The translations under genes and the position numbers were made by a program. From Vibrio renipiscarius (lineage in GTDB: Bacteria > Pseudomonadota > Gammaproteobacteria > Enterobacterales > Vibrionaceae): DNA of 64,000 bases. The notes beneath the pieces are model-generated. The model was not told the origin of the DNA, made no database searches, and worked only from the letters and a program-made list of their open reading frames with translations. Below are positions 46,514 to 61,765 of this stretch, one piece after another. Every line of letters starts with the position of its first letter. The first letter of the stretch is position 1. The DNA is taken from contig NZ_JTKH01000006.1 in NCBI RefSeq assembly GCF_000827885.1, forward strand, positions 248,001-312,000. The letters run 5' to 3'.

Positions 46514-46570
46514 GCGCCCTTAGCTCAGCTGGATAGAGCACGTCCCTTCTAAGGATGTGGTCGCAGGTTC
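46514..46570 (+). pseudogene. Host tRNA-Arg (UCU), 5' 57 nt, split by the element
   Basis: This runs from GCGCCCT through the anticodon loop CTTCTAA to the first half of the T-arm, ending GCAGGTTC. The next base begins foreign sequence. The missing 20 nt (GAATCCTGCAGGGCGTGCCA) are found at 61746-61765. Joining the two gives an exact 77-nt tRNA with paired acceptor and T stems (GCAGG/CCTGC). As it stands this copy cannot form a T-arm or acceptor stem and cannot be functional. Confidence 0.93.
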
Positions 46571-46582
46571 TTATATTAGGTT
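46563..46582 (+). other. Left attachment site (attL)
   Basis: Junction of host T-arm GCAGGTTC with element end TTATATTAGGTT. With the right end (61728-61755) the shared core is GTTC, and the element ends are inverted repeats. See the att finding for the reconstructed sites. Confidence 0.8.
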
Positions 46583-46633
46583 ATTTCTGGTGTAACGGAT
46601 CAAGATGATTGACTAAAGGCTTTGTAACCTAAT
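46575..46633. repeat. Inverted repeat near the left end
   Basis: ATTAGGTTA (46575-46583) and its exact complement TAACCTAAT (46625-46633). The same AGGTT/AACCT word appears at the right end (61713-61735). Possible recombinase-binding arms. Confidence 0.6.
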
Positions 46634-46659
46634 TTGGTGAAATGAAGCGTACAAATGAT

Positions 46660-46688
46660 TTGAATTTCGTTTTTTAGCTAGATATAGT
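46660..46688 (+). promoter_or_regulatory. Promoter of the element-borne tRNA-Arg
   Basis: TTGAAT (46660-46665), 17-bp spacer, TATAGT (46683-46688), 16 bp before the tRNA 5' end. Both boxes and the distance fit a sigma-70 promoter. Confidence 0.6.
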
Positions 46689-46704
46689 TGAGAAACAAAA
46701 TAAA

Positions 46705-47018
46705 GCGCCCTTAGCTCAGTTGGATAGAGCACGTCCCTTCTAATTGGCTAGATTTTTCTAGCGTTCAGATTGGGCCTCTTTTTGGAAACGATAAGAGTGT
46801 AAGATGTCAAATTCGGGGAAACCTTACTTTAACGAGTTGGCAATCCCGAGCCAAGCCCAGTAATTTTGGGAAGGTGTAGAGACTAGACGGCATCTACCTA
46901 ACGCTTGCAAAGCTATGGTAAAGGTATAGTCCAGCGCACGAAGCCTTAATAGGTGGTAGCGAAAGCTATAGTGTGACGAAGGATGTGGTCGTAGGTTCGA
47001 ATCCTACAGGGCGTGCCA
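46705..47018 (+). tRNA. Element-borne tRNA-Arg (UCU) interrupted by a group I intron
   Basis: Exon 1 is 46705-46741 and exon 2 is 46979-47018, including encoded CCA; spliced length is 77 nt. The joined anticodon loop is CTTCTAA, with the intron after the third anticodon base (between positions 36 and 37). The two exons differ from the broken host copy by only one D-loop base (C to T) and one T-stem pair (GCAGG/CCTGC becomes GTAGG/CCTAC, a compensatory change). The gene has its own promoter upstream and terminator downstream, so it can replace the host gene if the intron splices. Confidence 0.92.
46742..46978 (+). ncRNA. Group I intron (IC3-like) inside tRNA-Arg
   Basis: A 237-nt intron without ORF. 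The 5' exon ends in U and the intron ends in G, as group I splicing requires. The core is nearly that of the Azoarcus tRNA-Ile intron: TGTCAAATTCGG, GAGCCAAGCC, then GGTGTAGAGACTAGACGGC and GGTATAGTCCAG. These give P3, P4 and P6 strands and the P7 pair (AGACTA with TAGTCC) that binds guanosine. P2 is CTCTT/AAGAG with a GAAA-containing loop. P9-like GGTAGCGAAAGCTAT follows. The P1 guide pairing appears short and was not settled by eye. Confidence 0.93.
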
Positions 47019-47024
47019 CTTTTA

Positions 47025-47061
47025 AGAGCCAGTATCTATTAATTTAGGTACTGGCTTTTTT
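47025..47061 (+). terminator. Terminator after the element-borne tRNA-Arg
   Basis: AGCCAGTA (47027-47034) pairs with TACTGGCT (47049-47056), followed by TTTTT. Confidence 0.8.
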
Positions 47062-47129
47062 GCATTTTCTTTCGACCGAAAACCTATTCCTTGTATTTAG
47101 ATCACAAACTGTGTAAAAAAACAGCCATC

Positions 47130-47206
47130 ATTGCACCATCATTGCACCACCATTGGTTTTTCTATTGTAGGATATACATAAGTTGAGGTTAATTTAGTGG
47201 TGCAAT
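47130..47206. promoter_or_regulatory. ATTGCACCA sites before the recombinase operon
   Basis: ATTGCACCA at 47130-47138 and 47141-47149, and its complement TGGTGCAAT at 47198-47206 touching the ribosome-site region of the first gene. The same word forms a perfect palindrome near the other end of the element (61596-61632). Possible operator or recombinase-accessory sites. Confidence 0.55.
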
Positions 47207-47212
47207 GGGAAG

Positions 47213-48649
47213 ATGGTTAGAAAAACAAAAAATGTTGTAAAAAGGGAACTCACCACACCAGGCGGTGTGATTTTTTATTCATTTGTTTCGAAAACCACAG
47301 GTTCAATTGTGGAGCTTGAAGAGCATATAAATAATCTGATATTGAACAACCAGCCATACAACACCGTCAAAGCGAAAGCTTCAGATTTAGCGAAGTTCTA
47401 TGATTTCTTCATTGAAGCATCAAATGTCCTCCACACACAGGCGTTTAAGGAAGAGCTTACGAAAAAACGTCATTACTCCTCTGCTTTTCATTTAAGAACC
47501 ACCCTGAATAATATTTTTAAAGCTTATCCTTCTTTTCTTATGGATGGAAAAAACTCAGAAAACCCACTTGCTAGAGTGTGCGCTATAAATCTTGATTCAA
47601 CCCCTCTGAGTAGAACATCAGCTAAACGTATGATTTCAAGTATGTGTGATTTTGTAACTGCATCAAATGCCCTTGAATACAGCATAGTGCAGCAGAGAAA
47701 GATGGATGGACTTATTAATGTAGATCAGCCATTTACTGCCGTTGGTGAAGAACTGGGTATGGTAAAAGAGATACAACCAAGTCAGCGTAAAGCGCTAATT
47801 GAGAACTCGTACTTAGCTGGTTGTATTTCGGGCGGAGCTAGGGTCTCGAAAATTAAAAACTTTTTCAAACTGCCCAGTGAGACCAAAAGCGAGGAACCTA
47901 AACACTTTCCAATGGATGCCATAGGGAAATTTCTCCTGAACACCAAAACTCATCGTGACAAATGTTTATATGCACTCTGCTTCGGTGGAGGGTTAAGAAT
48001 CTCTGAGGCTGCCAAGGTACGGTTTTGTGATTTGGATGTAATCAATGAAGAAGTTAAATTACACGATGAAGGTATAATTAGTTACCTTGAACTTGTTGAT
48101 TATAAATCAAAAAGTGGTAAGTCTGTAGAACACTTTCAGGTGACTTTTATAGAACCTTTTAAATCATTTTTCTTTGAAGAATTAACAAACTATTTAGATC
48201 AAGAAAGACCAGAGTCAAACTCTGAGTATGTCTTTTTACAAAGTCGATCCACAAAAAATAAGCAGACTGGTCTATTCGAATATCAACCCTACTATCGTTC
48301 TGCAAAGAGCACTATCAAGGAAGCGTGGGATTCAAACCTTGAGAGAGCTAGCTTAAATACAGATCCAAGGTTTGATTCACTTGGCACTCATTCAATGCGT
48401 CACTACTTCGGTGATTTCATGATCAATTACGCCCCTAACCCTATAGGTGGTAACGGCTACTCGCTTCTGGAAGTCCAATATTTTATGAGACACGCAGAAT
48501 CAAAGAGCACAAAGATTTACACCTCGCGCATTGACATTGAAAAAGTGCGCAAGGACACGCAAAAGATGAATGAAGTGATACTGAAAGCAATTCAATCTGG
48601 ACGCGAGCAAAACTTTATCTCAATAACAAATCAGGTTCACGATATATGA
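47213..48649 (+). CDS. Tyrosine recombinase A of the element
   Basis: A 478-aa integrase-type recombinase. The N-terminal ~225 residues are the core-binding region. The C-terminal catalytic domain has the full set Arg262 (GGLRISEA), His393 and Arg396 (HSMRHYF), His427 (MRHAES) and nucleophile Tyr436 (KIYT), with Lys300/303 as candidates for the beta-hairpin lysine. It is the first gene of the operon; its stop overlaps the next start as ATGA. The ATG has GGGAAG very close to it, so translation may be weak. It should catalyse excision and integration at the tRNA T-arm. Confidence 0.92.
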   Translation: MVRKTKNVVKRELTTPGGVIFYSFVSKTTGSIVELEEHINNLILNNQPYNTVKAKASDLAKFYDFFIEASNVLHTQAFKEELTKKRHYSSAFHLRTTLNNIFKAYPSFLMDGKNSENPLARVCAINLDSTPLSRTSAKRMISSMCDFVTASNALEYSIVQQRKMDGLINVDQPFTAVGEELGMVKEIQPSQRKALIENSYLAGCISGGARVSKIKNFFKLPSETKSEEPKHFPMDAIGKFLLNTKTHRDKCLYALCFGGGLRISEAAKVRFCDLDVINEEVKLHDEGIISYLELVDYKSKSGKSVEHFQVTFIEPFKSFFFEELTNYLDQERPESNSEYVFLQSRSTKNKQTGLFEYQPYYRSAKSTIKEAWDSNLERASLNTDPRFDSLGTHSMRHYFGDFMINYAPNPIGGNGYSLLEVQYFMRHAESKSTKIYTSRIDIEKVRKDTQKMNEVILKAIQSGREQNFISITNQVHDI

Positions 48650-51600
48650 TTTTTCTAGAAACCTTTACTCGGGTTAGCTTTAAGTCTCTCCTAGTTGAAT
48701 TTAAGTCTAAGATTAAAGAATATTGTAAAGAGGCTTACCCACCTGAATATCAGACAAATTATAGGGGGGCTAATGACGGTTCAGACCTTCTTCTTTCAGC
48801 ATTAAACAGAGAGTCAACCAAGCAACTTGACGAAATTAAGTTCTTTTTAATTCGCTGCGAAGAACTTGTTATAAAGGAATCCCGAGGCGACAGTATCGGG
48901 AGGTGCATGGATGTACTCGACGAGTTAATTCCATGGGAATCAAAGCCTAAAGTCAATGATATTTATAACCGATTGCATAATATGCGCTTGTTTTTGAGTT
49001 TTTTGGCTTTGAATAAGGTAATTAGGCTAAATCATATGTTTGGCTCCCACCCCAAAGCACTAATTGTCGCAGAGCGGATTGCTACCACAAAGCTAAGGCT
49101 CTTCATGCCTGTAATAGCTAATGATTTGTGGTTAGGTGCGACTAATAATCGCTTTAATAAACTTGGGGAACATATCGGAAGCGCCTCAATTATTACCCAC
49201 TATTCTGCTTATACTAAAGGTGTCGGTACAGATACGATTAATCAGTCTTTTAAAAGGCTGGCAGATGTTATCATCTCGAATGGAATAACTGATCTAAGTG
49301 AACTTAATACGGAAATTCTTTTGGATTATCACACTGATCTCCTTGAGTATTACAATGGTACGCCGCCTGGATATAATCTTAGGTTTGCAATTGATTTCCT
49401 AGTTGAATGCGGACTTATCGTTGATGCCAAATTTCACGACGAATTTAAACGTACTCCGAAGGACAATATCAAAAAGGCCGTGTCATCTTCAGTAAAAACC
49501 CACCCAGCTAAAAACAAGCTTGCTCGCACCTTTATCGGGGAATATGTCCAGAATGCTGAAGAGATTGTAGTTTCTAGACGAGATAAGAATACCATAGTTG
49601 ACTATGGATACTGGTCTGATTCTGGCGGTAGTGATTTTAACTTTTTCGCTGATAATCTTGACCAAAGCAATATTTGGATTGCAGCGCAACAAGATTATAT
49701 TCGAGCTTCTTCAGTTGAAGCTGGAACTAAGAAGCAGAAGAACACTCGTTTGAGTATATTCAACAAATACCTCTTTTCTTATCTACCATCGTATTTTAAG
49801 TCTGGGCTTTCGGGGAAATTCACTTATCCTGAAACTCCAAGTGAATTTATACATAGTTTGTATGTGCAGAGAAGTAACGTTTTCGAACTGCAAAATTCTG
49901 ATAAATTTGTAAATAATTTTCAGTATCCTGTATCTATACAACAATTTGTCTACGATATGACAGGTGCGGCTAGTAAAGCCAACACCGAAGGTAACAATAG
50001 CGGCAGGGATGCATTGGTTGTGATCAATGCCTTTTTTGATTATCTGACAGAGTTGGACTCAGGCATTGTTGGAAAATTCAGAAACCCTTTATCTGGTAAA
50101 GCAAAAGAAAAGGTTGGCAAAAGGTATACCAAAAACAGGAAATACGTTTTCAGTCTCACTTATTGGTTGGGATTGCGCTCATATGCAATGGCAGTTACCC
50201 ATCGGATACTGGATGACGTTCTTAACGCATTGAAGAATGGTGAAAACTGCCAACAATCAATTTATGTCCCTGAAGCGATTAACATCGATGGTGGCGATCA
50301 AAAAGCCATGGTTATTGGTCGAGTGTCGCTAGAGTCAATAACGAGGGTAAAACTTACCAAAGACGACAGCGTTATTTACACAAACGGTGTTAAAGACACT
50401 AGTATTTATATAAATAATCACATTCCATGGGCAATGATAACGCTGTTTTTGCACTCTGGACTTAGAAGATCTAACGCTCTCTGGTTAGATGAACGAGATT
50501 GTTTCTCTTATGTTGTGGAAGGCGCTGAATATCAGGAGATCGTGGTATCGACAGATAAAACGAAAACCAAACCATATAAGGTTTTGGTTCCTAATGAAGT
50601 GGTGACGCTATTAAAGAAAGTTGTTGAAATAAAACAGTTTGCAGCTAAATCCAACAAAAAACTAACAGAAGCAGTGCCTTACAATAATAGTGAGGATTCA
50701 AAATGGGGAGATATCTGCCCTATATTCCAAATTAAGGATTATCACGCTGATAATTCTGTACCGCACTGTTTCTCTGCGATAATTAATGAATACGAGAGTT
50801 TTTTAATTAGAAATAACGTAAGTTTTGAACCAACAACAATATATGCCCCTCAGTTGCATTATGCTCTCGATGAATTCGTTTACTTACGAGAGCATGGGGA
50901 TATTGACACGAAACCTTGCGAAATATCAGTTAAGTATCTTCTAGATCCTGAATTGGTGAAATTTATACCATTGGAAAAGAAGACGTTAGTTACTCCACAC
51001 TCATTACGTACGATGACTGATAGTGTGTTTGCGCCAATTGTTGGCGCAAAGGTAGTTGGTAAACTATTGACTGGCCAAACAGAATCTACCGTCGGCTACT
51101 ACACAAAGTTGTTGCCAGATAGTGCATCTAGAGATTTTATTAATCAAGTTGCGTACCTTGTGGCAGCCTCTAGAGAGGATGCTGCTTTAGTTACGGTGTC
51201 TGAGTCTCAAATTAATCAGGAGAGCTTTGAAAGTGATCTTAACAATTCGCCTCAGTCTACTATCAGTAAATATAACGCACAGTCCGTCAATTTCACATCG
51301 CCTGAAGGTGACGAAAAGCCGCTTAACGGATTAGCTGAGTTAGGGGCGGCTTATCACAGCAACATTGCTTATTTCCGCACACACATCTGCCCAATCGGTG
51401 GAAAATGTCCGAAAAAGGTTGTTACGGAAATTGGAGAGAAGCATTGTTACGTTTGTCCTTTGGCGGTAGTTACTAATAACCATCTCCCAGCGATCGCCGC
51501 TACCATCCGTGCTTTGTGCGATGACATTAAAAGCATCAACATAAAGTTGGATCACTTTAAAGACACAATGTATGAAATTGAAGTCGAAGAACTGGAACGA

Positions 51601-51990
51601 CAGAAGACTCAGTATGTTGTTGAAGCTTCGTATTGGTTAGCACGAAAGGATATCGCGGACCAATCTAATAATGGCAAAAATTCATATTATGTTTCGGACG
51701 AAGGCTTGGAGCTAATGCATGAAATTAAGCCAATAGATGCAAGCGATCAGGCAAAGCTATTTTTACGACTGAAAGAAACGGAAGGAGTCCCTACACTTCA
51801 AACGCAAACCTTATCTAATCAAGCGGCAAGATTGAGAAGGAAAGTCCAAGTGCTATCTAAGGATGGATGGGATGAAGCAGACGAGCTAACTGATATTGAA
51901 TACCTTGCTCAATTGTTTAATCTTAAAACTGAAATTCGAGGCATAAGCAATGAAGACAAAATGAAGATGCTTTTGCTTACAGAGGGATGA
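48646..51990 (+). CDS. Large tyrosine recombinase B with Cys cluster
   Basis: A 1114-aa protein, about twice the usual size. The first ~500 residues are unassigned, with two core-binding-like helical blocks. The catalytic fold lies at about residues 590-830: Arg607 (SGLRRSNALWL), Lys in STDKTKTKPYK, His785 and Arg788 (HSLR), Gln811 where the second His is usual, and Tyr818/Tyr819. A metal-binding-like cluster follows (Cys915, Cys921, His933/Cys934, Cys937). It is translationally coupled to gene A and comparable to the large second recombinase of Tn554-like or GInt-type systems, by analogy only. Confidence 0.85.
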   Translation: MIFLETFTRVSFKSLLVEFKSKIKEYCKEAYPPEYQTNYRGANDGSDLLLSALNRESTKQLDEIKFFLIRCEELVIKESRGDSIGRCMDVLDELIPWESKPKVNDIYNRLHNMRLFLSFLALNKVIRLNHMFGSHPKALIVAERIATTKLRLFMPVIANDLWLGATNNRFNKLGEHIGSASIITHYSAYTKGVGTDTINQSFKRLADVIISNGITDLSELNTEILLDYHTDLLEYYNGTPPGYNLRFAIDFLVECGLIVDAKFHDEFKRTPKDNIKKAVSSSVKTHPAKNKLARTFIGEYVQNAEEIVVSRRDKNTIVDYGYWSDSGGSDFNFFADNLDQSNIWIAAQQDYIRASSVEAGTKKQKNTRLSIFNKYLFSYLPSYFKSGLSGKFTYPETPSEFIHSLYVQRSNVFELQNSDKFVNNFQYPVSIQQFVYDMTGAASKANTEGNNSGRDALVVINAFFDYLTELDSGIVGKFRNPLSGKAKEKVGKRYTKNRKYVFSLTYWLGLRSYAMAVTHRILDDVLNALKNGENCQQSIYVPEAINIDGGDQKAMVIGRVSLESITRVKLTKDDSVIYTNGVKDTSIYINNHIPWAMITLFLHSGLRRSNALWLDERDCFSYVVEGAEYQEIVVSTDKTKTKPYKVLVPNEVVTLLKKVVEIKQFAAKSNKKLTEAVPYNNSEDSKWGDICPIFQIKDYHADNSVPHCFSAIINEYESFLIRNNVSFEPTTIYAPQLHYALDEFVYLREHGDIDTKPCEISVKYLLDPELVKFIPLEKKTLVTPHSLRTMTDSVFAPIVGAKVVGKLLTGQTESTVGYYTKLLPDSASRDFINQVAYLVAASREDAALVTVSESQINQESFESDLNNSPQSTISKYNAQSVNFTSPEGDEKPLNGLAELGAAYHSNIAYFRTHICPIGGKCPKKVVTEIGEKHCYVCPLAVVTNNHLPAIAATIRALCDDIKSINIKLDHFKDTMYEIEVEELERQKTQYVVEASYWLARKDIADQSNNGKNSYYVSDEGLELMHEIKPIDASDQAKLFLRLKETEGVPTLQTQTLSNQAARLRRKVQVLSKDGWDEADELTDIEYLAQLFNLKTEIRGISNEDKMKMLLLTEG

Positions 51991-51996
51991 GGCTTT

Positions 51997-52671
51997 ATGG
52001 CTGGTTTAATTGATGTAAAAGTGGAAACGGCTAATCGTAGAACTGATATGGTTAAAGAAATCCTCTCAGGTCTTGCGAGATCCCATGCTAGCTTTAAATC
52101 CGCTAGAAAACTTTCGGAGTTCATTGCGGAAAAGATGACTGAAAAAGGTGAGCGTATAGATAGCTCTACATTGAGGCGTAAGGGATCAAAATATAAAGAG
52201 TTAATTGATAATTATGTAGGAAAAAAGGCTAGTTCAAATGAAGTGGCTAACAATGTAGCAAGAGACTTAAAGTTAAGGCGACAAACAAAAAAAATTGAAG
52301 AACTTGAGGCTCTTATTAAAGATAGGAATCGTGAGTTGGGCGAGAAAGAGTCTGAAATTGAAACCGTGCTTATCGAATTGCATCAGGAGAAAAGCAAAAG
52401 TTTGTCTACAATAGCACCACCTAAGGCATCGACATATAACAAGAGCGAACTCACCAAGGCTAAGTTGATCATTGAGGAGCAAACAAAACAGCTAGAACAA
52501 CTTAGCCGCCAGCTTGATTTGGCGTGCAAGACGTTGAACCAAATAATGTTGGACTCTCACAAATCATACGTTGTCGATAATGGACAGTTTAAAGATACGG
52601 TCGCTAGTAATGAAGTCATGTTCCACAAAGGTAACTTAGAGAGATACTTTCTACTATATGGTTCAGAGTAA
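51997..52671 (+). CDS. Coiled-coil accessory protein C of the recombinase operon
   Basis: A 224-aa protein starting six bases after gene B. Residues 1-75 resemble a small DNA-binding helical domain (ILSGLARSHASFKSARKLSEFIAEKMTEKG). Residues about 95-185 form a long coiled coil. No catalytic residues are seen. Small coiled-coil partners (for example TnpC of Tn554) accompany paired recombinases and direct their orientation; the role here is inferred from place and shape. Confidence 0.7.
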   Translation: MAGLIDVKVETANRRTDMVKEILSGLARSHASFKSARKLSEFIAEKMTEKGERIDSSTLRRKGSKYKELIDNYVGKKASSNEVANNVARDLKLRRQTKKIEELEALIKDRNRELGEKESEIETVLIELHQEKSKSLSTIAPPKASTYNKSELTKAKLIIEEQTKQLEQLSRQLDLACKTLNQIMLDSHKSYVVDNGQFKDTVASNEVMFHKGNLERYFLLYGSE

Positions 52672-52739
52672 ATATCAAACTAGGTACAAAAAACTATACT
52701 TTTGTTAAACATTTACAGTGCCCATAGGAGCTAATACTT

Positions 52740-53177
52740 ATGGCAAATGGTCAGCAGAAAGCGCAGCAAAATCTAGAGGCTTTTGAGGTCTGGAAAGCCA
52801 CACAGACGGACGATGACTTAAAACAAATCGTGTTCAGAGGTCAGCTTAATCGTATCGAAGTGGCAAAGGGTATCGGTTGTGGTAAATCTGCTTTAAACCA
52901 AAATCCTGCTCTTAAAAATGCACTCAAAGAGCTAGAAAATGAACTGCGTGACCGAGGTGTTTTGCCAGATTTGACGGATTTCGCTAAAGAGAATGCGGAT
53001 AACCCCAATGTCTACGACAATTCGGCTAATCGTAAGTTACTAGACTCTAAGCGTCTGTCTTCATTAGAGGCTGAGAATATTGAACTGAAAGCCAAGATCA
53101 AGGAACTTGAAAAACGACTTGAGCGCTTCGGTGAGTTGTCAGAAACCTTATCCGAAATAGGGTTGATGCCACGATGA
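52740..53177 (+). CDS. Small coiled-coil protein D of the recombinase operon
   Basis: A 145-aa protein. The N-terminal half includes VFRGQLNRIEVAKGIGCGKSALNQNPALKNAL, which resembles a helix-turn-helix of the type found in small TnpC/GinD-like partners. The last ~45 residues form a short coiled coil (LSSLEAENIELKAKIKELEKRLER). It is translated just upstream of and overlapping the helicase start (ATGA). No known function. Confidence 0.65.
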   Translation: MANGQQKAQQNLEAFEVWKATQTDDDLKQIVFRGQLNRIEVAKGIGCGKSALNQNPALKNALKELENELRDRGVLPDLTDFAKENADNPNVYDNSANRKLLDSKRLSSLEAENIELKAKIKELEKRLERFGELSETLSEIGLMPR

Positions 53178-55339
53178 ATGTCACTTTCTATCAAGACCAG
53201 ATGCGTGTCACCAGCATCCCTTATCGCACGAATAAACTAGTGATATTCAGTGGTGTGCCGCTGGCGAAGGACTCTTATAAAACTAATAGCGGGAAGTATT
53301 ACGTCACAATCAAAGCCGACCCTGATAGCCTTCCTGTGCTCCCTACATTAGGCCAGCATTGGTCAGTTAAAGGCGCTCTCCAGATAAAAAATGTGGAGGT
53401 GGGTGATTATGTAATGCAGCAGCACACTTATGAATCACCTAAACATGTTGAATGCACTTTACCTGAAACTGGTGAGCAACTGATACGCTTTATCGCCAGA
53501 GAAAAAGACTTCAAAGGTATTGGCGAAAGCAAAGCTAGGGCGCTCTGGTCGCTTTTAGGTAAAGACCTGCATTCCACATTAACAAATGACACGACTGAAT
53601 CCAGAAAGCGTCTGACATCGATTCTGAGTGAAGATTCAGTAGATGCGCTCTTTAAGGGGTACGCCAAATACAAAAATTTGGCACATTGCAACTGGATGAG
53701 TGAGCACAACATCCCCGCCAGTGTGCAACAACGGCTACTCAAGTATCATGGCGGAGCCTCCATTGATGTTATCAAGGATAATCCTTACGCTCTGATGGGC
53801 TTTGGTCTTTCGTTTAATGATATTGAAGATATTATCAAGAAAACGCCCTTTCAGACCGATGTGGCGCAGGATGACCCAAGAAGGCTCAGCGCAGCATTGG
53901 AAATGGCGATTCGAAAGGAGATTGAAAAAGGTCATACCTATACTACTCATGCTAATGTGTGCCCTTATCTCGTTAAGTTACTGCAAGACAAAGCACTGGT
54001 CACTCAGGCGTTCCAATCAGGTCATGATAAAGCTCAGTACATTTTAAACCCCGATACAGGGGCTTACCATCCCACGGCGCAACTTCTGATGGAAAGCGTT
54101 GTTGCTAAACGACTTAGCATACTGATTAAACGAAATGGCTTGTATGATGAAAAGGCTAATATTGCTTATTGCTCGGCGGCTGCCGAGCTTCCCTACGACC
54201 TAACTCGTAAACAAATCGAAGCTGTAACAACATGCCTGGATCATTCCGTAAGTTGTATCACAGGCGGAGCTGGAACAGGCAAGACAACTGTACTAAGAAC
54301 TGCTCTCAGAGCTTACCATCAACTCGGATTTGAAATACACGCTGTGGCGCTCAGTGGTCGTGCTGCAATGAGGCTTCATGAATCAATCGGCTTTATTACT
54401 TCAACTATTGCTAAACTGCTGCGTGAAGAACCCATAGAACCAAGTGTAGATAAACCAAACCATCTACTAGTAATTGATGAAGCGAGTATGATTGATCTAC
54501 CGACCATGTATCGTCTTGTTAATCACATTCACCCTTCTGTACGAATGATATTCACTGGTGATCCTGAACAACTCCCACCGATAGGCTGTGGTAAGGTGCT
54601 TGCAGATATCGTAGAAGCCAAAACGGTCGCCAATACCATGCTAGATATAGTCAAAAGGCAAGAAGGCTCAACAGGCATTCCTGAATACTCAAAGTTCATC
54701 AATCAAGGTGTGATGCCTAAACAGTTAAGTACGAGCGCAATACACTTTCACGAAACCAGTAAAACAGACATTCCAAAAGTATGTAGCGAGCTTTACCAAG
54801 AATCTCCTGCAAATAGTCGTGTTATGGCTCCAACAAAAGCATTGGTATCAGAAATCAATAAACTCATCCAACAAGCGGTCAACTCAAGCAGCGACAGTCT
54901 TGAATTCGAAATCAATGGCGACAAATTCTTTCTACCTATCCGTCGTAATGATGCTGTGCTATTTACACAAAATCATTACGACAAAGGTATTCAGAATGGG
55001 TCTCTTGGCACACTCACTAGCGTCAAACCTTCTGATGGCAGTTACGGTGAAGTGACACTAGATACAGGTGAAAAGGTCGATATAAAACAATCAGTGCTCG
55101 ACTGTATGGAGTTGGGGTATGCAATCACACTGCACAAAGCCCAAGGCTCACAGTTTCCACGCATCATTATTGCCCTGCAAAAAGGAAGAATTGTAGATAG
55201 GGCTTGGCTCTATACGGCAATTACCAGAGCAGAAAGAGAAATTCATATTGTTGGCAGTAGTGATGACATGAAGCAAATTACCGAAGATCTTAGTCATTCT
55301 CATAAGCGAAATAGCTACTTGAAAGTGCTTTTGCAGTAG
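53174..55339 (+). CDS. RecD-like superfamily 1 helicase
   Basis: A 721-aa ATP-dependent 5'-3' type helicase resembling RecD2/TraA. The N-terminal ~340 residues include a helix-hairpin-helix-like part (FKGIGESKARALW). Walker A GGAGTGKTT is at residues 364-372 and Walker B LLVIDEASM at about 434-442. Motifs IV-VI follow (ITLHKAQGSQFPRIIIAL, LYTAITRAE). It overlaps gene D by four bases, so it belongs to the same operon. A helicase in a recombinase operon suggests processing of single strands during strand transfer or circle replication, an inference. Confidence 0.88.
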   Translation: MNVTFYQDQMRVTSIPYRTNKLVIFSGVPLAKDSYKTNSGKYYVTIKADPDSLPVLPTLGQHWSVKGALQIKNVEVGDYVMQQHTYESPKHVECTLPETGEQLIRFIAREKDFKGIGESKARALWSLLGKDLHSTLTNDTTESRKRLTSILSEDSVDALFKGYAKYKNLAHCNWMSEHNIPASVQQRLLKYHGGASIDVIKDNPYALMGFGLSFNDIEDIIKKTPFQTDVAQDDPRRLSAALEMAIRKEIEKGHTYTTHANVCPYLVKLLQDKALVTQAFQSGHDKAQYILNPDTGAYHPTAQLLMESVVAKRLSILIKRNGLYDEKANIAYCSAAAELPYDLTRKQIEAVTTCLDHSVSCITGGAGTGKTTVLRTALRAYHQLGFEIHAVALSGRAAMRLHESIGFITSTIAKLLREEPIEPSVDKPNHLLVIDEASMIDLPTMYRLVNHIHPSVRMIFTGDPEQLPPIGCGKVLADIVEAKTVANTMLDIVKRQEGSTGIPEYSKFINQGVMPKQLSTSAIHFHETSKTDIPKVCSELYQESPANSRVMAPTKALVSEINKLIQQAVNSSSDSLEFEINGDKFFLPIRRNDAVLFTQNHYDKGIQNGSLGTLTSVKPSDGSYGEVTLDTGEKVDIKQSVLDCMELGYAITLHKAQGSQFPRIIIALQKGRIVDRAWLYTAITRAEREIHIVGSSDDMKQITEDLSHSHKRNSYLKVLLQ

Positions 55340-55464
55340 GTATTTCAAACAAATTGATTTTTCAAAAAAAATATGCCATCTATTTGATATGGTCACCAGT
55401 TACAAGTAGTTGATTGTGCTAACATCCAAAAAGTCAGCATTACACTACTTTAAAGGAGAAACCA

Positions 55465-55779
55465 TTGGCTAGACGAGGTAGTGGTTTACGAACGGCGATA
55501 AAGGTTGTTAAAGCAATAGATAGAGCTAACAAACAGGCTGCTCGTGAATCCCTGCGCAGGCAAAAAGCTCGTGAGCGAGCGCATGCTCAGGCAATGAGAG
55601 AGCACGAGAGAGAGGTGCGAGAAGCTCAGCGCGAATTACAGAGACAAGTAAGACTAAAGAAGTCAGCAGCAAAGCAAGCTTTTAAAGATGCCATAGCTAA
55701 CGCCGCAGAAGAATACCAAGAGCGGTGTGAAGAGCGAGCCGCTCTTAGGAAGCAATTCATACAAGAGGTTCTAAAGTAA
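55465..55779 (+). CDS. Small basic coiled-coil protein upstream of the DUF4041 nuclease
   Basis: A 104-aa, very charged protein (many Arg, Glu, Ala), almost entirely a predicted coiled coil from about residue 20 to 95. The start is TTG with an ideal AAAGGAGA site upstream; no ATG fits. It ends three bases before the next gene, so the two are coupled. It may be a partner of the nuclease or a DNA-associated protein. No family is recognised. Confidence 0.65.
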   Translation: MARRGSGLRTAIKVVKAIDRANKQAARESLRRQKARERAHAQAMREHEREVREAQRELQRQVRLKKSAAKQAFKDAIANAAEEYQERCEERAALRKQFIQEVLK

Positions 55780-55782
55780 TCA

Positions 55783-57225
55783 ATGGATAATAATTTACTG
55801 ATGTTGGCAGGCTTATCATTAGTAGCTGTCGTATTAACTTATATTTTAACAAAACGCTCAGCCGATAAGAAAATCGAGCAATATAAGTCGCTAGATGAAG
55901 CACTAGCAAAGACAAAAGAGGAATATGACTCTGCGTGTCTAAGCCGAGAAACAATAATCGCTGCCAATGAAACCGCAAAGCGAGATCTAGATAAAATTAA
56001 TGAGGAAACAGCCGAGCTTCAAGCTTTGAAAGGACAAGATGATACACTAAAACAAAGTATTCAAGAGCAGCAAATGACCTTAGAGTCAACCAAATCAAGA
56101 TTAGATGAACTCAACTCAAGCATTGAAAAAGGTGAGCTTGATCTAGAAGAGTTAATGGGAGATCTCGATTTATATTCAAGGCTTGATGAGTATACTGCTC
56201 ATGGTCACTTTGAAATGCCGCAGTACCTTTACGAAACATCTACTCGATTCGCAGAAGAGATCAAGGACGTTAGGCAACAACAAAAAGACATGATCAAAGA
56301 TAAAACAGCGATCACTTTCCCTGAGTCGACGGTGATATCTAACGACAAGTCATTCAATAATAAAATTCTAAATGGTCAGGTTAAGCTCATGCTTACTGCT
56401 TTTAATATTGAATGTGATCTTCTTATCGGTAAAGTGTCGCCGAGTTCGTTTGGACGAACTCTAGAACGTATAGAAAAGCTTGCCAATACATTAGAGAAGT
56501 CAGCCGCGACCTTAGAGTGTGGATTTGATATAGATTATATCGAACTTAAGTTCGAAGAATGTAAGCTTCAATATCAATACACACTCAAAAAGCAAGAAGA
56601 GGTTGCTGAGCAGAAGCTTATCAAAGAACAGATCCGTGAAGAACAGCGAGCTATTAAAGAGTTTGAGAAAGCGATTGCCGATGCAGAAAAAGAAGAAAAA
56701 ATGTACCGTAATCTTCTTGATAAAGCACAGCAAGAACTTGCTAAGGCTACTGAGCAGGATCGCTCAGAAATGGAGCAACGTATAGCAATTCTTGAGCAGC
56801 AACTCGCTGAAGCAGAAGCGAAAGAAGAACGAGCTAAGAGTATGGCAGAGCAAACCCGTAAAGGGCATGTTTACGTCATTAGTAATATTGGTTCGTTTGG
56901 AGAGGATGTTTACAAGATCGGGCTTACTCGCCGTCTAGAGCCAATGGACAGGGTTAAAGAACTAGGCGATGCAAGTGTACCATTCCCATTTGACGTACAT
57001 GCTATGATTTATACTGATGATGCCCCAGCTCTTGAAACAGCGCTACACCGCGAATTCAATTCAAAACGTGTAAACGCAGTAAACCTTCGCAAAGAGTTCT
57101 TTAACGTCGATCTAGCATCTATTCAAGAAGCCGTAGAAAAGTTAGCTGGCATAGAAGCGGACTTTAAAATGACTGCTCTGGCTGAAGATTACTATGAAAG
57201 CTTAAGATTAAGTGAAGCAGCATAA
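55783..57225 (+). CDS. Membrane-anchored DUF4041 / GIY-YIG (T5orf172-type) nuclease
   Basis: A 480-aa protein. Residues 5-23 are one membrane helix, then a coiled coil to about residue 120. The DUF4041 region follows (about 185-310; LMLTAFNIECDLLIGKV), then a second coiled coil. The C-terminal GIY-YIG nuclease fold runs from about 361 to 450. The fold shows Tyr364 (VYVIS), Tyr377-Gly380 (YKIG), Arg383/384 and Glu418 (ALETALHREF). The same order (membrane helix, DUF4041, GIY-YIG) occurs in a recently described anti-phage nuclease (SNIPE), recalled and not verified. A defence role is therefore a hypothesis. A hairpin terminator follows. Confidence 0.82.
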   Translation: MDNNLLMLAGLSLVAVVLTYILTKRSADKKIEQYKSLDEALAKTKEEYDSACLSRETIIAANETAKRDLDKINEETAELQALKGQDDTLKQSIQEQQMTLESTKSRLDELNSSIEKGELDLEELMGDLDLYSRLDEYTAHGHFEMPQYLYETSTRFAEEIKDVRQQQKDMIKDKTAITFPESTVISNDKSFNNKILNGQVKLMLTAFNIECDLLIGKVSPSSFGRTLERIEKLANTLEKSAATLECGFDIDYIELKFEECKLQYQYTLKKQEEVAEQKLIKEQIREEQRAIKEFEKAIADAEKEEKMYRNLLDKAQQELAKATEQDRSEMEQRIAILEQQLAEAEAKEERAKSMAEQTRKGHVYVISNIGSFGEDVYKIGLTRRLEPMDRVKELGDASVPFPFDVHAMIYTDDAPALETALHREFNSKRVNAVNLRKEFFNVDLASIQEAVEKLAGIEADFKMTALAEDYYESLRLSEAA

Positions 57226-57248
57226 GTTGTTTTCATTTACCGCTGATT

Positions 57249-57278
57249 ATTGAGCTAGCTTCCTTGGCTAGCTCAATT
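57249..57278 (+). terminator. Hairpin after the DUF4041 gene
   Basis: ATTGAGCTAGC and GGCTAGCTCAAT form an 11-bp stem with a short loop; the T tail is short. Confidence 0.65.
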
Positions 57279-57422
57279 CTGCCCAAAGCGCATTGAGCAT
57301 AGTTAAAGAACAGATCCCATACCAGACTATCGCAAGACTTTAATTAATGAAGGTAAAAAATAAAGGTCTCCCCCAATAACTTTTCGAGTTTGGCCTATAA
57401 GATAAGTGGCTGTAGGGTAATT

Positions 57423-57500
57423 ATGAAAGAAATAGCTGGCTCTGCTGTCATTGGATCCGATGACTTAATTAAGAATCCATCGGCAATGATGCGGGTATAA
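57423..57500 (+). pseudogene. Possible antitoxin-like gene fragment
   Basis: A 25-codon frame beginning MKEIAGSAVIGS and continuing DDLIKNPSAMM then a stop. The phrase DL-KNPSA resembles the N-terminus of Phd/YefM-type antitoxins. It is far too short to fold as one, so at most it is a remnant. Weak evidence. Confidence 0.25.
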
Positions 57501-57566
57501 ATTGACGTTATTCCGTAGTTTGCAATAATATTACAGAGTTGTGTTTTTAGATTGGCTGCGTTAGTA

Positions 57567-57899
57567 ATGAAGAATAGTAAACTTGAAGCTTTTATTAATA
57601 AGTCGATTGGTATGTGGGGAGATAGGCTAGATTATTCTTTAGTGGAATATATTAATCAAAGAACTAGTGTTAAATTGATATGTAATAAGCATAGGGAACA
57701 AAGTTTCTTCTTGCAAACGCCTAAATCTCATTTCATGTGCAAACACCATCCTTGTCCACACTGTTATAAAGAAGAATCTGGGAAATTTCAAAATCTATGG
57801 CGAGAAGACCCAAATCATTGGAAAAACAAAACCGAAGAATATTCAGATCTTGTAATAACTAATTATGATTTTACTTTGATTAATTTAGTTTTAAAGTGA
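57567..57899 (+). CDS. DUF723-like zinc-binding protein, short
   Basis: A 110-aa protein. The pattern D-Y-S-L-V-E-Y-I-N followed by KLICNKHR...FLQTPKSHFMCKHHPCPHC is that of DUF723-like repeats. These are common in phage and mobile-element nucleases and carry Cys/His pairs (Cys53, then CPHC about 40 residues later). Family members normally continue into a nuclease domain, so this copy may be truncated. The start is uncertain (ATG at 57567 or TTG at 57552). Function is unknown. Confidence 0.5.
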   Translation: MKNSKLEAFINKSIGMWGDRLDYSLVEYINQRTSVKLICNKHREQSFFLQTPKSHFMCKHHPCPHCYKEESGKFQNLWREDPNHWKNKTEEYSDLVITNYDFTLINLVLK

Positions 57900-57901
57900 A
57901 T

Positions 57902-57930
57902 AAAAAAAGCCGTATTATACGGCTTTTTTT
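57902..57930. terminator. Bidirectional terminator
   Basis: AAAAAAAGCCGTA/TACGGCTTTTTTT stem between converging genes. Confidence 0.9.
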
Positions 57931-57939
57931 ATTTATTAC

Positions 57940-60612
<2,673 letters not shown>

Positions 60613-60860
60613 TTAGTTATTCCGTTTAATAGCTTAGATGATAGCCATGATCAAATGTGACTATATTGAACAGAAAATATAGTGGTTACATATTTAGTTT
60701 TTGATTCGTTGGGGGGATTGAATCAAGTTAATTTAGTATGTGCCGTTTTGAGGCGTTTGCATTATATGTTTGCTTTATAATTTAGATATAGGTGTTTGTC
60801 ACAAAATTGAACTCGAAAATAAATTACAGATGTAAATATTTGTGACTCGCAAATTTGTGT

Positions 60861-60910
60861 TGTTAAATTGTTAAATTGTTAAATTGTTAAATTGTTAAAT
60901 TGTTAAATTG
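60861..60910. repeat. Tandem 8-bp repeat (TGTTAAAT, 6.25 copies)
   Basis: Six perfect copies plus two bases, about 250 bp upstream of the GH63 gene. A simple-sequence repeat prone to copy-number change. Confidence 0.95.
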
Positions 60911-60999
60911 TGGTGAGCACCTTGAGTGAGATGTAAGCTTTCATTTGAGTGATTGTTTTTATGTTTTAATAGATTAACGCACATAAGTTCGTGATTAAA

Positions 61000-61433
61000 T
61001 TCTAATATTGAATGTGTAAAAATATATATTTTTATACATATAGGCTAATGGGCATCTCAGGGATAGGTATAACTTGCGATAACGATTTAGATATCGTGTC
61101 GAGTATTGATAACTGCCTAATTTGAGCCAGTGAAGCCAGCTTTTCCTTAACTGCCTGAGTAGCCGAACATACAGAGTGTCTGTTATTTTACTTTCCATAT
61201 ACCGATGATGGCACCTGAATACGCTGTGAGCGATTAATGCGAGCTTTCCGCCGTTTTTTTGATTTTCAGGTGAAACGCTTTCTTAGATTGCAATGACGTT
61301 TCTTAAGATGTGTGCCCAGCAGAGTTGCCGATTAGATTCATCGATATATTTATAGGCGGAGTATTGGTCTGTGACTGAAATATGTGGGATAGCCTTCACC
61401 GAGAAGTCGCTTAGCGGTATGTTGATTCCTGCC
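61000..61433 (-). pseudogene. IS66-family transposase remnant
   Basis: On the minus strand, translation of 61433 to about 61305 gives AGINIPLSDFSVKA..., VTDQYSAYKYIDE and NRQLCWAHILRNVIAI, the DDE-domain phrase of IS66-type transposases. After a stop and frameshift it resumes as NGGKLALIAHSVFRCHHRY and RLLRQLRKSWLHWLKLG. Stops and shifts make it non-functional, and no terminal repeats were found. It marks an older insertion within the element. Confidence 0.65.
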
Positions 61434-61595
61434 ACTGTTTACTTGGAAGAAGGCTGCATCTTTACTGAGTGCTTAGTAAAATGAATAAATATTCACGAAT
61501 TGGTTTGTTTGGTATGGTAAATATTTATTCGCATTGTGTATGTTGAGGTTGAATTTTCAAGTCGTTATAGCAAATTTGAGAAATGGTATGATGTT

Positions 61596-61632
61596 AACTT
61601 GACAATTGCACCAGTGGTGCAATTGTCAAGTT
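61596..61632. repeat. Perfect 37-bp palindrome near the right end
   Basis: The 18-bp arms AACTTGACAATTGCACCA and TGGTGCAATTGTCAAGTT surround a single G. The arms contain ATTGCACCA, which also occurs three times before the recombinase operon. It lies 113 bp from the right boundary. Confidence 0.9.
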
Positions 61633-61727
61633 CAAGAAAATTGATCACATTAATACCCATGAAGCTAAGTTATATCAAGGTGTGGAAGAGTTGGTCACTC
61701 ACTCATTCATTCATTAGGTTGAAAATT

Positions 61728-61755
61728 AACCTTATATAAGAGTTCGAATCCTGCA
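61728..61755 (+). other. Right attachment site (attR)
   Basis: Element end AACCTTATATAAG (61728-61740), then AGTTC, then host T-arm GAATCCTGC. The element end is the inverted copy of the left end CTTATATTAGGTT (12 of 13 bases). Confidence 0.8.
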
Positions 61756-61765
61756 GGGCGTGCCA
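61746..61765 (+). pseudogene. Host tRNA-Arg (UCU), displaced 3' 20 nt
   Basis: GAATCCTGCAGGGCGTGCCA completes the fragment at 46514-46570: CCTGC pairs with its GCAGG, and AGGGCGT with its GCGCCCT. It has no promoter and cannot act alone. Confidence 0.93.

What the first reader, a model, noticed from the sequence alone, without database searches (positions are those of the whole stretch)
46742..46978. Group I intron inside a Vibrio tRNA-Arg(UCU) gene
The tRNA is interrupted after the anticodon by 237 nt whose core matches, block by block, the Azoarcus tRNA-Ile group I intron as I remember it. It has the correct U before and G at the end of the intron. Self-splicing tRNA introns are known in cyanobacteria and some alpha- and beta-proteobacteria. 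I know of none in a gammaproteobacterial tRNA-Arg(UCU) or on a mobile element.
Basis: partly seen in the sequence, partly recalled or inferred. Interest (0 to 1): 0.95.

Follow-up and report, generated by a model that had tools for sequence, protein, structure and literature searches.

The report
Self-splicing rescue tRNA on mobile element
In this Vibrio genome a mobile element has split the cell's own arginine tRNA gene and carries a complete replacement copy that is itself interrupted by a predicted self-splicing group I intron, so reading of two rare arginine codons likely depends on an element-supplied RNA that would have to cut itself out.

Summary
Window 46742-46978 is a group I intron (RF00028, 61.4 bits, cut-off 50) after the anticodon of a complete tRNA-Arg(UCU) gene, 46705-47018. 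Its fold is kept by covariation across nine relatives.

The gene lies at the left end of a ~15.2 kb element that has split the chromosome's own intronless tRNA-Arg(UCU) gene in its T-loop. The fragments, 46514-46570 and 61746-61765, rejoin to an intact tRNA. In G121, a two-contig relative with the same arrangement, no other UCU or CCU tRNA was found.

A search blind to introns found tRNAs broken at GTTC|TTAT in 9 of 329 Vibrionaceae genomes. In 8 of 9 the replacement carries a group I intron: Arg(UCU) with one intron, a CAU tRNA with another. G108 has an intronless divergent tRNA.

Most likely the element brings a rescue tRNA whose intron must splice; the intron is probably a passenger that such elements spread. 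In G433 an intron-bearing copy was itself split by a later element, which speaks against a shield role. Splicing is predicted, not shown.

The parts
46514..46570 (+). 5' fragment (57 nt) of the chromosome's own intronless tRNA-Arg(UCU) gene (argU), ends in GTTC at the element's left border
   Evidence: sequence; rejoined with 61746-61765 it gives a 77-nt tRNA-Arg(tct) by ARAGORN; RF00005 only 24 bits on its own, cut-off 29
46571..61745 (+). integrative element, about 15.2 kb, between the two halves of the native tRNA gene
   Evidence: same left border (GTTC|TTAT) in a tRNA in 9 of 329 Vibrionaceae genomes
46571..46582 (+). left terminal arm TTATATTAGGTT
   Evidence: near-inverted copy of 61728-61739
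46660..46688 (+). promoter-like site of the replacement tRNA, TTGAAT-17-TATAGT
   Evidence: 1 found, shuffles mean 1.3, so weak alone; TTGAAT and TATAGT are also upstream of the gene in G081, G121 and Enterovibrio, but not in the Shewanella, Psychromonas and G110 copies as printed
46705..46741 (+). 5' exon of the replacement tRNA-Arg(UCU), ends with the anticodon TCT
46742..46978 (+). group I intron, 237 nt, between tRNA positions 36 and 37
   Evidence: no ORF of 60 aa or more overlaps it
46979..47018 (+). 3' exon of the replacement tRNA-Arg(UCU), CCA encoded
47024..47059 (+). intrinsic-terminator-like hairpin closing the tRNA unit
   Evidence: 1 found, shuffles mean 0.5
47213..48649 (+). IntA, tyrosine recombinase, 478 aa
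   Evidence: PF00589 8.5e-15; relatives in the other tRNA-splitting elements
48646..51990 (+). large protein, 1114 aa, likely second tyrosine recombinase (no Pfam or NCBIfam match)
   Evidence: tyrosine-recombinase-like motif at 607-819 by a regex of mine; relatives of 1032-1130 aa in the same gene order in seven other elements
51997..52671 (+). third core protein, 224 aa, unknown function
   Evidence: third gene in all eight elements read; sequence likeness shown among the argU elements and among the ileX-type elements, not between the two sets
52740..53177 (+). VPA1267-family protein
   Evidence: NF040697, 193 bits, cut-off 90
53174..55339 (+). RecD2-like helicase
   Evidence: TIGR01448 362 bits, below its cut-off of 500
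55783..57225 (+). cargo: PD-Lambda-1 type anti-phage defence protein
   Evidence: PADLOC PDLC03976 1.3e-180
57940..60612 (-). cargo: alpha-glucosidase (YgjK-like)
   Evidence: NF007525 1053 bits, cut-off 625
61728..61739 (+). right terminal arm AACCTTATATAA
61740..61745 (+). 6-bp spacer or footprint GAGTTC at the right border (left border has AGGTTC)
   Evidence: reading it as a footprint is inference from the SE and Tn554 literature
61746..61765 (+). 3' fragment of the native argU gene

Best explanation
A ~15 kb element with tyrosine recombinase genes has split the chromosome's tRNA-Arg(UCU) gene in its T-loop and carries, beside its left border, a complete replacement tRNA-Arg(UCU) gene interrupted by a group I intron that is predicted to splice itself out and so likely supply the cell's only reader of AGA and AGG codons. 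Shown by sequence: the split native gene, the complete intron-bearing copy between promoter-like and terminator-like sequences, the covarying ribozyme fold, and the same design with another tRNA and another intron in relatives. Inferred: transcription, self-splicing, dependence of the host, movement of the element, and that the intron is mainly a passenger that these elements carry between species rather than a part that the element needs.
For: Intron: RF00028 61.4 bits; six of six Vibrio copies above cut-off; covariation incl. P2, P3, P6a, P7 and P8; RNAalifold 22 of 73 pairs with double changes. Split native gene: flanks rejoin to an intact tRNA in the window and in both ileX-type elements with two visible ends, G142 and G162. 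Sole reader: own draft genome, 6 ACG + 1 CCG and no UCU or CCU among 88 typed tRNAs; two-contig genome G121, 136 tRNAs, 8 ACG + 1 CCG, no UCU, no CCU. Recurrence: 9 of 329 genomes with a tRNA broken at GTTC|TTAT, reversed control 0; 8 of 9 with an intron in the replacement, against tRNA-located introns in 8 of the other 320, Fisher p 3.6e-11 (genomes are not independent). Converse: all 7 of 227 genus genomes with an IntA match at 1e-20 are among those with a split tRNA. IntA and large-protein relatives in all eight elements read at length. Passenger and vehicle: the Enterovibrio intron is 98% identical to that of G121 while their IntA are 27% identical; G108, whose IntA is 63% identical to the Enterovibrio one, carries an intronless divergent tRNA-Arg(UCU).
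Against: No RNA data: splicing, aminoacylation and host dependence are untested. The window's genome is a 30-contig draft; 1 of 89 tRNA places over cut-off, cut by a contig end, was not typed, and only 150 of 285 candidates were scored, so another UCU or CCU gene could be missing; in G121 150 of 425 were scored. V. pectenicida and V. hepatarius carry the intron in argU at the usual place beside folD with no element seen, so the intron can exist without one. Two T-loop elements (G108, G433) do without the intron. The promoter-like and terminator-like sites are no more numerous than shuffles allow.
Confidence: 0.86

Rival explanations
1. The intron is kept because it hides the replacement tRNA from the element's own recombinases: it splits the attachment site in DNA while the RNA is restored by splicing.
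For: Two different tRNAs with different introns show the same design. In a second group (G204, G202, G052, G253) the native argU is broken in the anticodon stem, within about 10 nt of the intron site of the replacement gene. The intronless G108 uses a divergent tRNA body, which would also hide it.
Against: For the window type the break is in the T-loop, and the T-arm with the stretch from the intron to it is intact in the 3' exon. In G433 an intron-bearing tRNA-Arg was itself split at GTTC|TTAT by a later element with IntA and large-protein relatives.
Confidence: 0.15
2. The intron or a divergent body keeps homology between the split native fragment and the nearby replacement short, so that homologous recombination does not trim the element away.
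For: Broken and complete copies lie about 190 bp apart as direct repeats in the window; the intron cuts their shared run from 57 to 39 nt. The element-free intron-bearing argU of V. pectenicida and V. hepatarius could be products of such a deletion or of gene conversion (inference).
Against: 39 nt is still enough for recombination in many bacteria (general knowledge); G433 carries an intronless replacement.
Confidence: 0.15
3. The intron entered chromosomal argU first, and element and intron meet only by chance because both favour tRNA genes.
For: Intron in argU without an element seen in V. pectenicida and V. hepatarius; structural RNA genes, tRNA genes included, are the usual homes of bacterial group I introns (PMC3984707, passages).
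Against: 8 of 9 tRNA-splitting elements carry an intron in the replacement, against 8 of 320 other genomes; the ileX-type elements do so with a different intron.
Confidence: 0.1
4. The intron-bearing gene is a dead relic and AGA/AGG are read by another tRNA.
For: No expression data; the draft assembly may lack genes.
Against: Exons intact, fold under selection, no UCU or CCU gene found in G121 besides the intron-bearing one, while AGA or AGG occur in 18 of 33 mechanically called ORFs of 150 aa or more left of the element.
Confidence: 0.04

Closest known systems
Group I introns of bacterial tRNA genes (Azoarcus tRNA-Ile(CAU), Agrobacterium tRNA-Arg(CCU), cyanobacterial tRNA-Leu(UAA) and tRNA-fMet, Acidovorax/Burkholderia tRNA-Ile2)
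   Same: small ribozyme in the anticodon loop, RF00028 fold; the fMet and Acidovorax/Burkholderia Ile2 cases were seen in passages of PMC8450103; Agrobacterium Arg(CCU) and the insertion sites are recalled
   Different: here in tRNA-Arg(UCU) of a gammaproteobacterium, and on an element that has split the host's own copy
[quoted passage not shown]
   Different: no Tfp gene between the two recombinases, the target is a tRNA gene, a tRNA is carried; no IntA or large-protein match at 1e-5 in 72,556 plasmid records. The SE paper has 0 occurrences of 'tRNA' and 'intron' in its main text
Gamma-Mobile-Trio (GMT) elements
   Same: IntA has weak GmtY similarity, VPA1267-family neighbour, defence cargo (the GMT paper itself was not in the library, its content is recalled)
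   Different: GmtY 32 bits against a cut-off of 340; the large and small core proteins match no NCBIfam model of note
Genomic islands and prophages at argU (for example DLP12 in E. coli; recalled)
   Same: argU beside folD as integration site
   Different: those usually restore the gene with a 3' piece (recalled); here a whole second gene with an intron is brought and the native gene stays split

Membership tests
Group I introns | score over the Rfam RF00028 cut-off | tested here: met
   61.4 against 50 bits, full model; six of six Vibrio copies over cut-off
Group I introns | P3-P8 core with P7 pseudoknot kept across relatives | tested here: met
   all 13 helices 92.6-100% paired; double changes in P1, P2, P3, P6a, P7 (one sequence), distal P8 and the two P9 branches
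Group I introns | U.G pair at the 5' splice site in P1 and G as last nucleotide | tested here: met
   exon UCU pairs GGG of the intron in 9 of 9 rows; last base G in all nine, whose ends were set by a search that asked for this end
Group I introns | self-splicing with guanosine | not testable with these tools
   needs in vitro transcription
Subgroup IC3 | IC3-specific core features | not tested
   no subgroup model on hand; likeness to the Azoarcus intron is recalled
tRNA-Arg(UCU) gene | spliced exons form a complete tRNA with UCU anticodon | tested here: met
Integrative element in a tRNA gene | two borders whose removal restores the target | tested here: met
   window, G142 and G162
Integrative element in a tRNA gene | excision or transfer | not testable with these tools
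   no reads or experiments
SE (strand-biased circularizing integrative element) | intA-tfp-intB-srap operon | tested here: not met
   three genes, none between the two recombinases
SE (strand-biased circularizing integrative element) | near-inverted arms with 6-bp spacer at the joined ends | tested here: met
   AACCTTATATAA-GAGTTC-TTATATTAGGTT from the two ends of the window element; similar ends in G142 and G162 (compared by eye)
Gamma-Mobile-Trio | GmtY over its cut-off plus the two partner families | tested here: not met
   32.1 against 340 bits; no match for the window's large and small proteins over any cut-off

The most novel reading that the evidence does not exclude
A family of recombinase-driven elements lives by splitting single-copy, rare-codon tRNA genes (Arg-UCU and CAU) and making the cell depend on an element-borne replacement tRNA that must be completed by a self-splicing ribozyme: an essential-gene hostage device and, at the same time, the main vehicle by which group I introns spread through gammaproteobacterial tRNA genes, leaving intron-bearing tRNAs behind when the element decays.
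Probability: 0.6. Interest if true: 0.88.

Novelty: new variant of a known kind. Interest (0 to 1): 0.78.

Why it matters
Group I introns in bacterial tRNAs have a patchy spread without a clear vehicle, since many lack a homing endonuclease (general knowledge, recalled). Here a vehicle is visible: elements that carry an intron-bearing tRNA, split the host's own gene and, as G110 and Psychromonas suggest, may leave the new gene behind as a fixture. If right, it is also a mobile element that cannot be lost without losing a needed tRNA, and a tRNA supply that hinges on ribozyme splicing. Both are directly testable. [quoted passage not shown]

Tried and rejected
Integrase-shield idea: attractive, but the T-arm is intact in the 3' exon and G433 shows an intron-bearing copy split by a later element; kept only as a rival. 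GMT and SE membership: tested, not met. Phage origin of the exons: Vibrio phages carry a tRNA-Arg 98.7% like the exons, but 62 rows in the listed part of the genus search are 99% like the spliced tRNA, 30 of them read with their flanks, so a phage origin is not needed. Insertions with two intact intronless argU copies 3.3-11.7 kb apart (G181, G215, G089, G160, G176) are a different design: the native gene stays whole. Naming carriers through the IntA protein in genome contigs gave 26 pattern stretches, none confirmed. tblastn of both recombinases against plasmids found nothing; blastn of 46571-48649 against plasmids gave 6 records, matched over the intron part only, in Tritonibacter and Bradyrhizobium. 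The intron is rare elsewhere: in a sample of 315 genomes of the order, 5 have an RF00028 match at 1e-7, two of them (G000, G052) already counted and two (G433, G522) just under the family cut-off; in E. coli 5 of 5426 genomes have a partial match, all on plasmids.

Errors of mine: the first broken-tRNA pattern had a gap one base too long, matched nothing, not even the window, and is discarded; one search is the corrected run. One search printed nothing because of a wrong regex and one search stopped with a script error; both were repeated corrected. The decayed-fragment alignment scores printed were cut at the wrong place and are not used; broken fragments were read by eye from printed sequence. 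The first nine-row intron alignment (A3) had wrong ends and is not used; A4 is. ARAGORN labels for G202a and G142 (Gln), G052 (Ser) and G213 (422-nt intron) are mis-split; their tRNA identity was read by eye. 'ileX' and 'Ile2' for the CAU tRNA are my reading from recalled E. coli gene order and codon reading; ARAGORN prints Met. Second group (anticodon-stem break): no recombinase and no right end found in the stretches read, so that it is an element at all is inference. G213's contig ends beside the tRNA, and G213 had no IntA match, so its core genes were not seen.

Full report
The reported feature is real. cmscan finds RF00028 at window 46744-46943, 61.4 bits against a cut-off of 50, the only match over the cut-off in the own genome. 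ARAGORN's default mode reports only two other tRNAs in the window; with introns allowed it reads tRNA-Arg(tct) with a 237-nt intron from gene position 38. That is 46742-46978, between tRNA positions 36 and 37, after a U and ending in G. The spliced exons fold as a tRNA.

The fold is supported by comparison. Nine introns from Vibrio, Enterovibrio, Shewanella and Psychromonas were aligned with seven exon bases on each side (A4). RNAalifold found 73 pairs, 22 with double changes. A structure that I named from the group I plan, with P7 as a pseudoknot, gave 99.1% of 540 cells paired and 16 of 60 pairs with changes on both sides, each reached by 0 of 500 shuffles; sliding the partners by 1 to 3 columns dropped pairing to 28.2-40.2%. 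P1 pairs the exon's UCU with GGG, with U.G at the splice site in 9 of 9. P4, P5, P6, the base of P8 and P9 do not vary, so they say nothing either way, and the P7 double change is in one sequence.

The surroundings change the story. At 46514-46570, next to folD, lies the first 57 nt of an intronless tRNA-Arg(UCU) gene ending in GTTC; its last 20 nt are at 61746-61765. Joined, they are a 77-nt tRNA-Arg(tct). So a ~15.2 kb element has split argU in the T-loop. Its ends are near-inverted arms, TTATATTAGGTT and AACCTTATATAA, with GAGTTC at the right border. The intron-bearing gene is a second, complete tRNA-Arg(UCU) gene inside the element's left end, between a promoter-like site and a terminator-like hairpin (neither beyond chance alone); the promoter hexamers recur in G081, G121 and Enterovibrio.

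Element content: IntA, a tyrosine recombinase (PF00589); a 1114-aa protein without Pfam or NCBIfam match but with a tyrosine-recombinase-like motif, for which a search of the best 7969 candidates found 17 relatives, those with a source name called hypothetical or uncharacterized protein, from Vibrio, Photobacterium and Celerinatantimonas; a 224-aa protein; a VPA1267-family protein; a RecD2-like helicase; a PD-Lambda-1 defence protein; and an alpha-glucosidase. The element's ORFs use AGA and AGG 5.8 times as often as mechanically called ORFs left of it (51 of 3539 against 30 of 12135 codons).

Is it the only reader of AGA and AGG? In the own draft genome, RF00005 gave 90 places, one of them the 24-bit broken fragment. 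ARAGORN typed 88 of the other 89; the last is cut by a contig end. They include 6 Arg-ACG and 1 Arg-CCG, no UCU or CCU. In G121, a two-contig genome with the same arrangement, 136 tRNAs include 8 ACG and 1 CCG and no UCU or CCU. Both tRNA searches scored only the best 150 candidates.

Distribution. In 227 genomes of the genus, six carry this intron; three further genomes have only matches of 27-34 nt. G000, G081 and G121 have the split native gene and the element; V. hepatarius (G070) and V. pectenicida (G114) have the intron in argU at its usual place without an element seen; G110 has the intron in a divergent tRNA-Arg(UCU) beside folD, with what looks like the native promoter left but the native gene gone (read by eye). 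One pattern scan of named genomes gave five contigs: Psychromonas sp. MB-3u-54, Enterovibrio norvegicus FF-33, V. pectenicida, V. hepatarius and Shewanella sp. SG41-4, all in tRNA-Arg(UCU). In Enterovibrio and Shewanella a split native fragment ending GGTTC|TTAT lies upstream and an IntA relative downstream. In Psychromonas a decayed fragment is followed by the intron-bearing gene and then by tRNA-His, so the element seems to be gone.

A family-wide scan with RF00028 (E at most 1e-7, strict filters) gave 21 matches in 17 of 329 Vibrionaceae genomes. ARAGORN with introns places a tRNA over 18 of the 21; the other three (G276 and two in G070) are not in tRNAs by that test. Four genomes (G162, G213, G202, G142) have a different intron in a CAU tRNA, and all four show a split CAU tRNA ending GTTC|TTAT upstream. 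G204, G202, G052 and G253 have a further intron, at position 34/35 of a tRNA-Arg(UCU), with a native argU broken in the anticodon stem some 150-240 bp upstream; the agent of that break was not identified.

To test the link without looking at introns, I searched the same 329 genomes for tRNA 5' parts running into GTTC|TTAT: 9 genomes, none for the reversed pattern. Eight of the nine carry an intron in the replacement tRNA. The ninth, G108, carries a complete, intronless and divergent tRNA-Arg(UCU). With tRNA introns in 8 of the other 320 genomes, Fisher's p is 3.6e-11, but species and elements share ancestry, so the firm statement is that two different tRNAs with two different introns show it. 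From the other side, an IntA profile matched 7 of 227 genus genomes at 1e-20, and all seven have a split tRNA. Eight elements were read at length; all eight have relatives of IntA and of the large protein with a 211-231 aa protein next, but the small proteins of the argU and the ileX-type elements did not match each other. In G202 and G142 the core lies several kb from the tRNA. Three elements have both ends in view (window, G142 and G162; 15.2, 12.6 and 16.3 kb), and in all three the joined flanks make an intact tRNA.

What the intron does for the element. In G433 (one contig; order sample) a decayed argU fragment is followed by the intron-bearing tRNA, which is itself split at GGTTC|TTAT, then by a complete intronless tRNA-Arg(UCU), then by IntA and large-protein relatives. 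So the intron does not block T-loop integration and is not required. The Enterovibrio intron is 98% identical to that of G121, while their IntA proteins are 27% identical. tRNA-intron cassettes thus seem to move between recombinase backbones. My reading is that the replacement tRNA is the needed part and the intron a tolerated, well-spread passenger; this is inference.

Literature. [quoted passage not shown] 'tRNA' and 'intron' do not occur in its main text. If the window's element moves in that way, splitting argU would be irreversible, which would explain why it brings a whole tRNA; this is inference. The 2014 review of bacterial group I introns (PMC3984707, passages) names tRNA and rRNA genes as main homes and says that phage introns known then were all in protein-coding genes. 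tRNAscan-SE 2.0 (PMC8450103, passages) reports introns in tRNA-fMet and tRNA-Ile2. Ten searches of the open library listed nothing on an intron-bearing tRNA carried by an integrative element, judged from titles, starts of abstracts and the passages named; the library holds only open papers, and the GMT paper was not in it.

Noticed in passing
L052-L107 (IMG/VR viral contigs): Group I intron cores in viral contigs: 46 of 61 pattern places lie inside an ARAGORN tRNA (my count: 15 labelled Leu, 11 Arg-UCU, 20 others, many probably mis-split Leu). The 2014 review said phage introns were then known only in protein-coding genes. Some contigs may be host DNA.
   Followed up: partly
L219 (G433), reverse strand about 17290-16680: Three generations of tRNA-Arg in a row: decayed native fragment, intron-bearing copy split by a later element, intact intronless copy.
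   Followed up: yes
L157, L158, L160, L170: Second group: native argU broken in the anticodon stem (GAGCAC|RACTAACCCCC) with a tRNA-Arg(UCU) carrying a different intron at position 34/35; in L179 downstream ORFs include a HamA-domain and a helicase protein. No recombinase found.
   Followed up: partly
window 47213-60612: Element ORFs use AGA/AGG 5.8-fold and ATA 3.4-fold more often than ORFs left of the element; as I recall, the two tRNA types that these elements replace read just these codons.
   Followed up: partly
L221 2001-2097 (E. coli plasmid NZ_CP023816.1): A group-I-like core (73.5% identity over 97 bases) near a predicted aac(3)-IId gene, also in a few other enterobacterial and one Acinetobacter plasmid; ARAGORN gives a doubtful tRNA call.
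   Followed up: no
L171, L173 (G070), L162 (G276): Further group I intron matches with no tRNA around them.
   Followed up: no
L140-L143, L145: Other argU-associated insertions with two intact intronless argU copies 3.3-11.7 kb apart: a second integration style at argU.
   Followed up: no
L223, L224 (Tritonibacter and Bradyrhizobium replicons): Similar intron cores in tRNA genes of alphaproteobacterial plasmids or chromids; L224 reads as tRNA-Leu(UAA) with a 204-nt intron.
   Followed up: no
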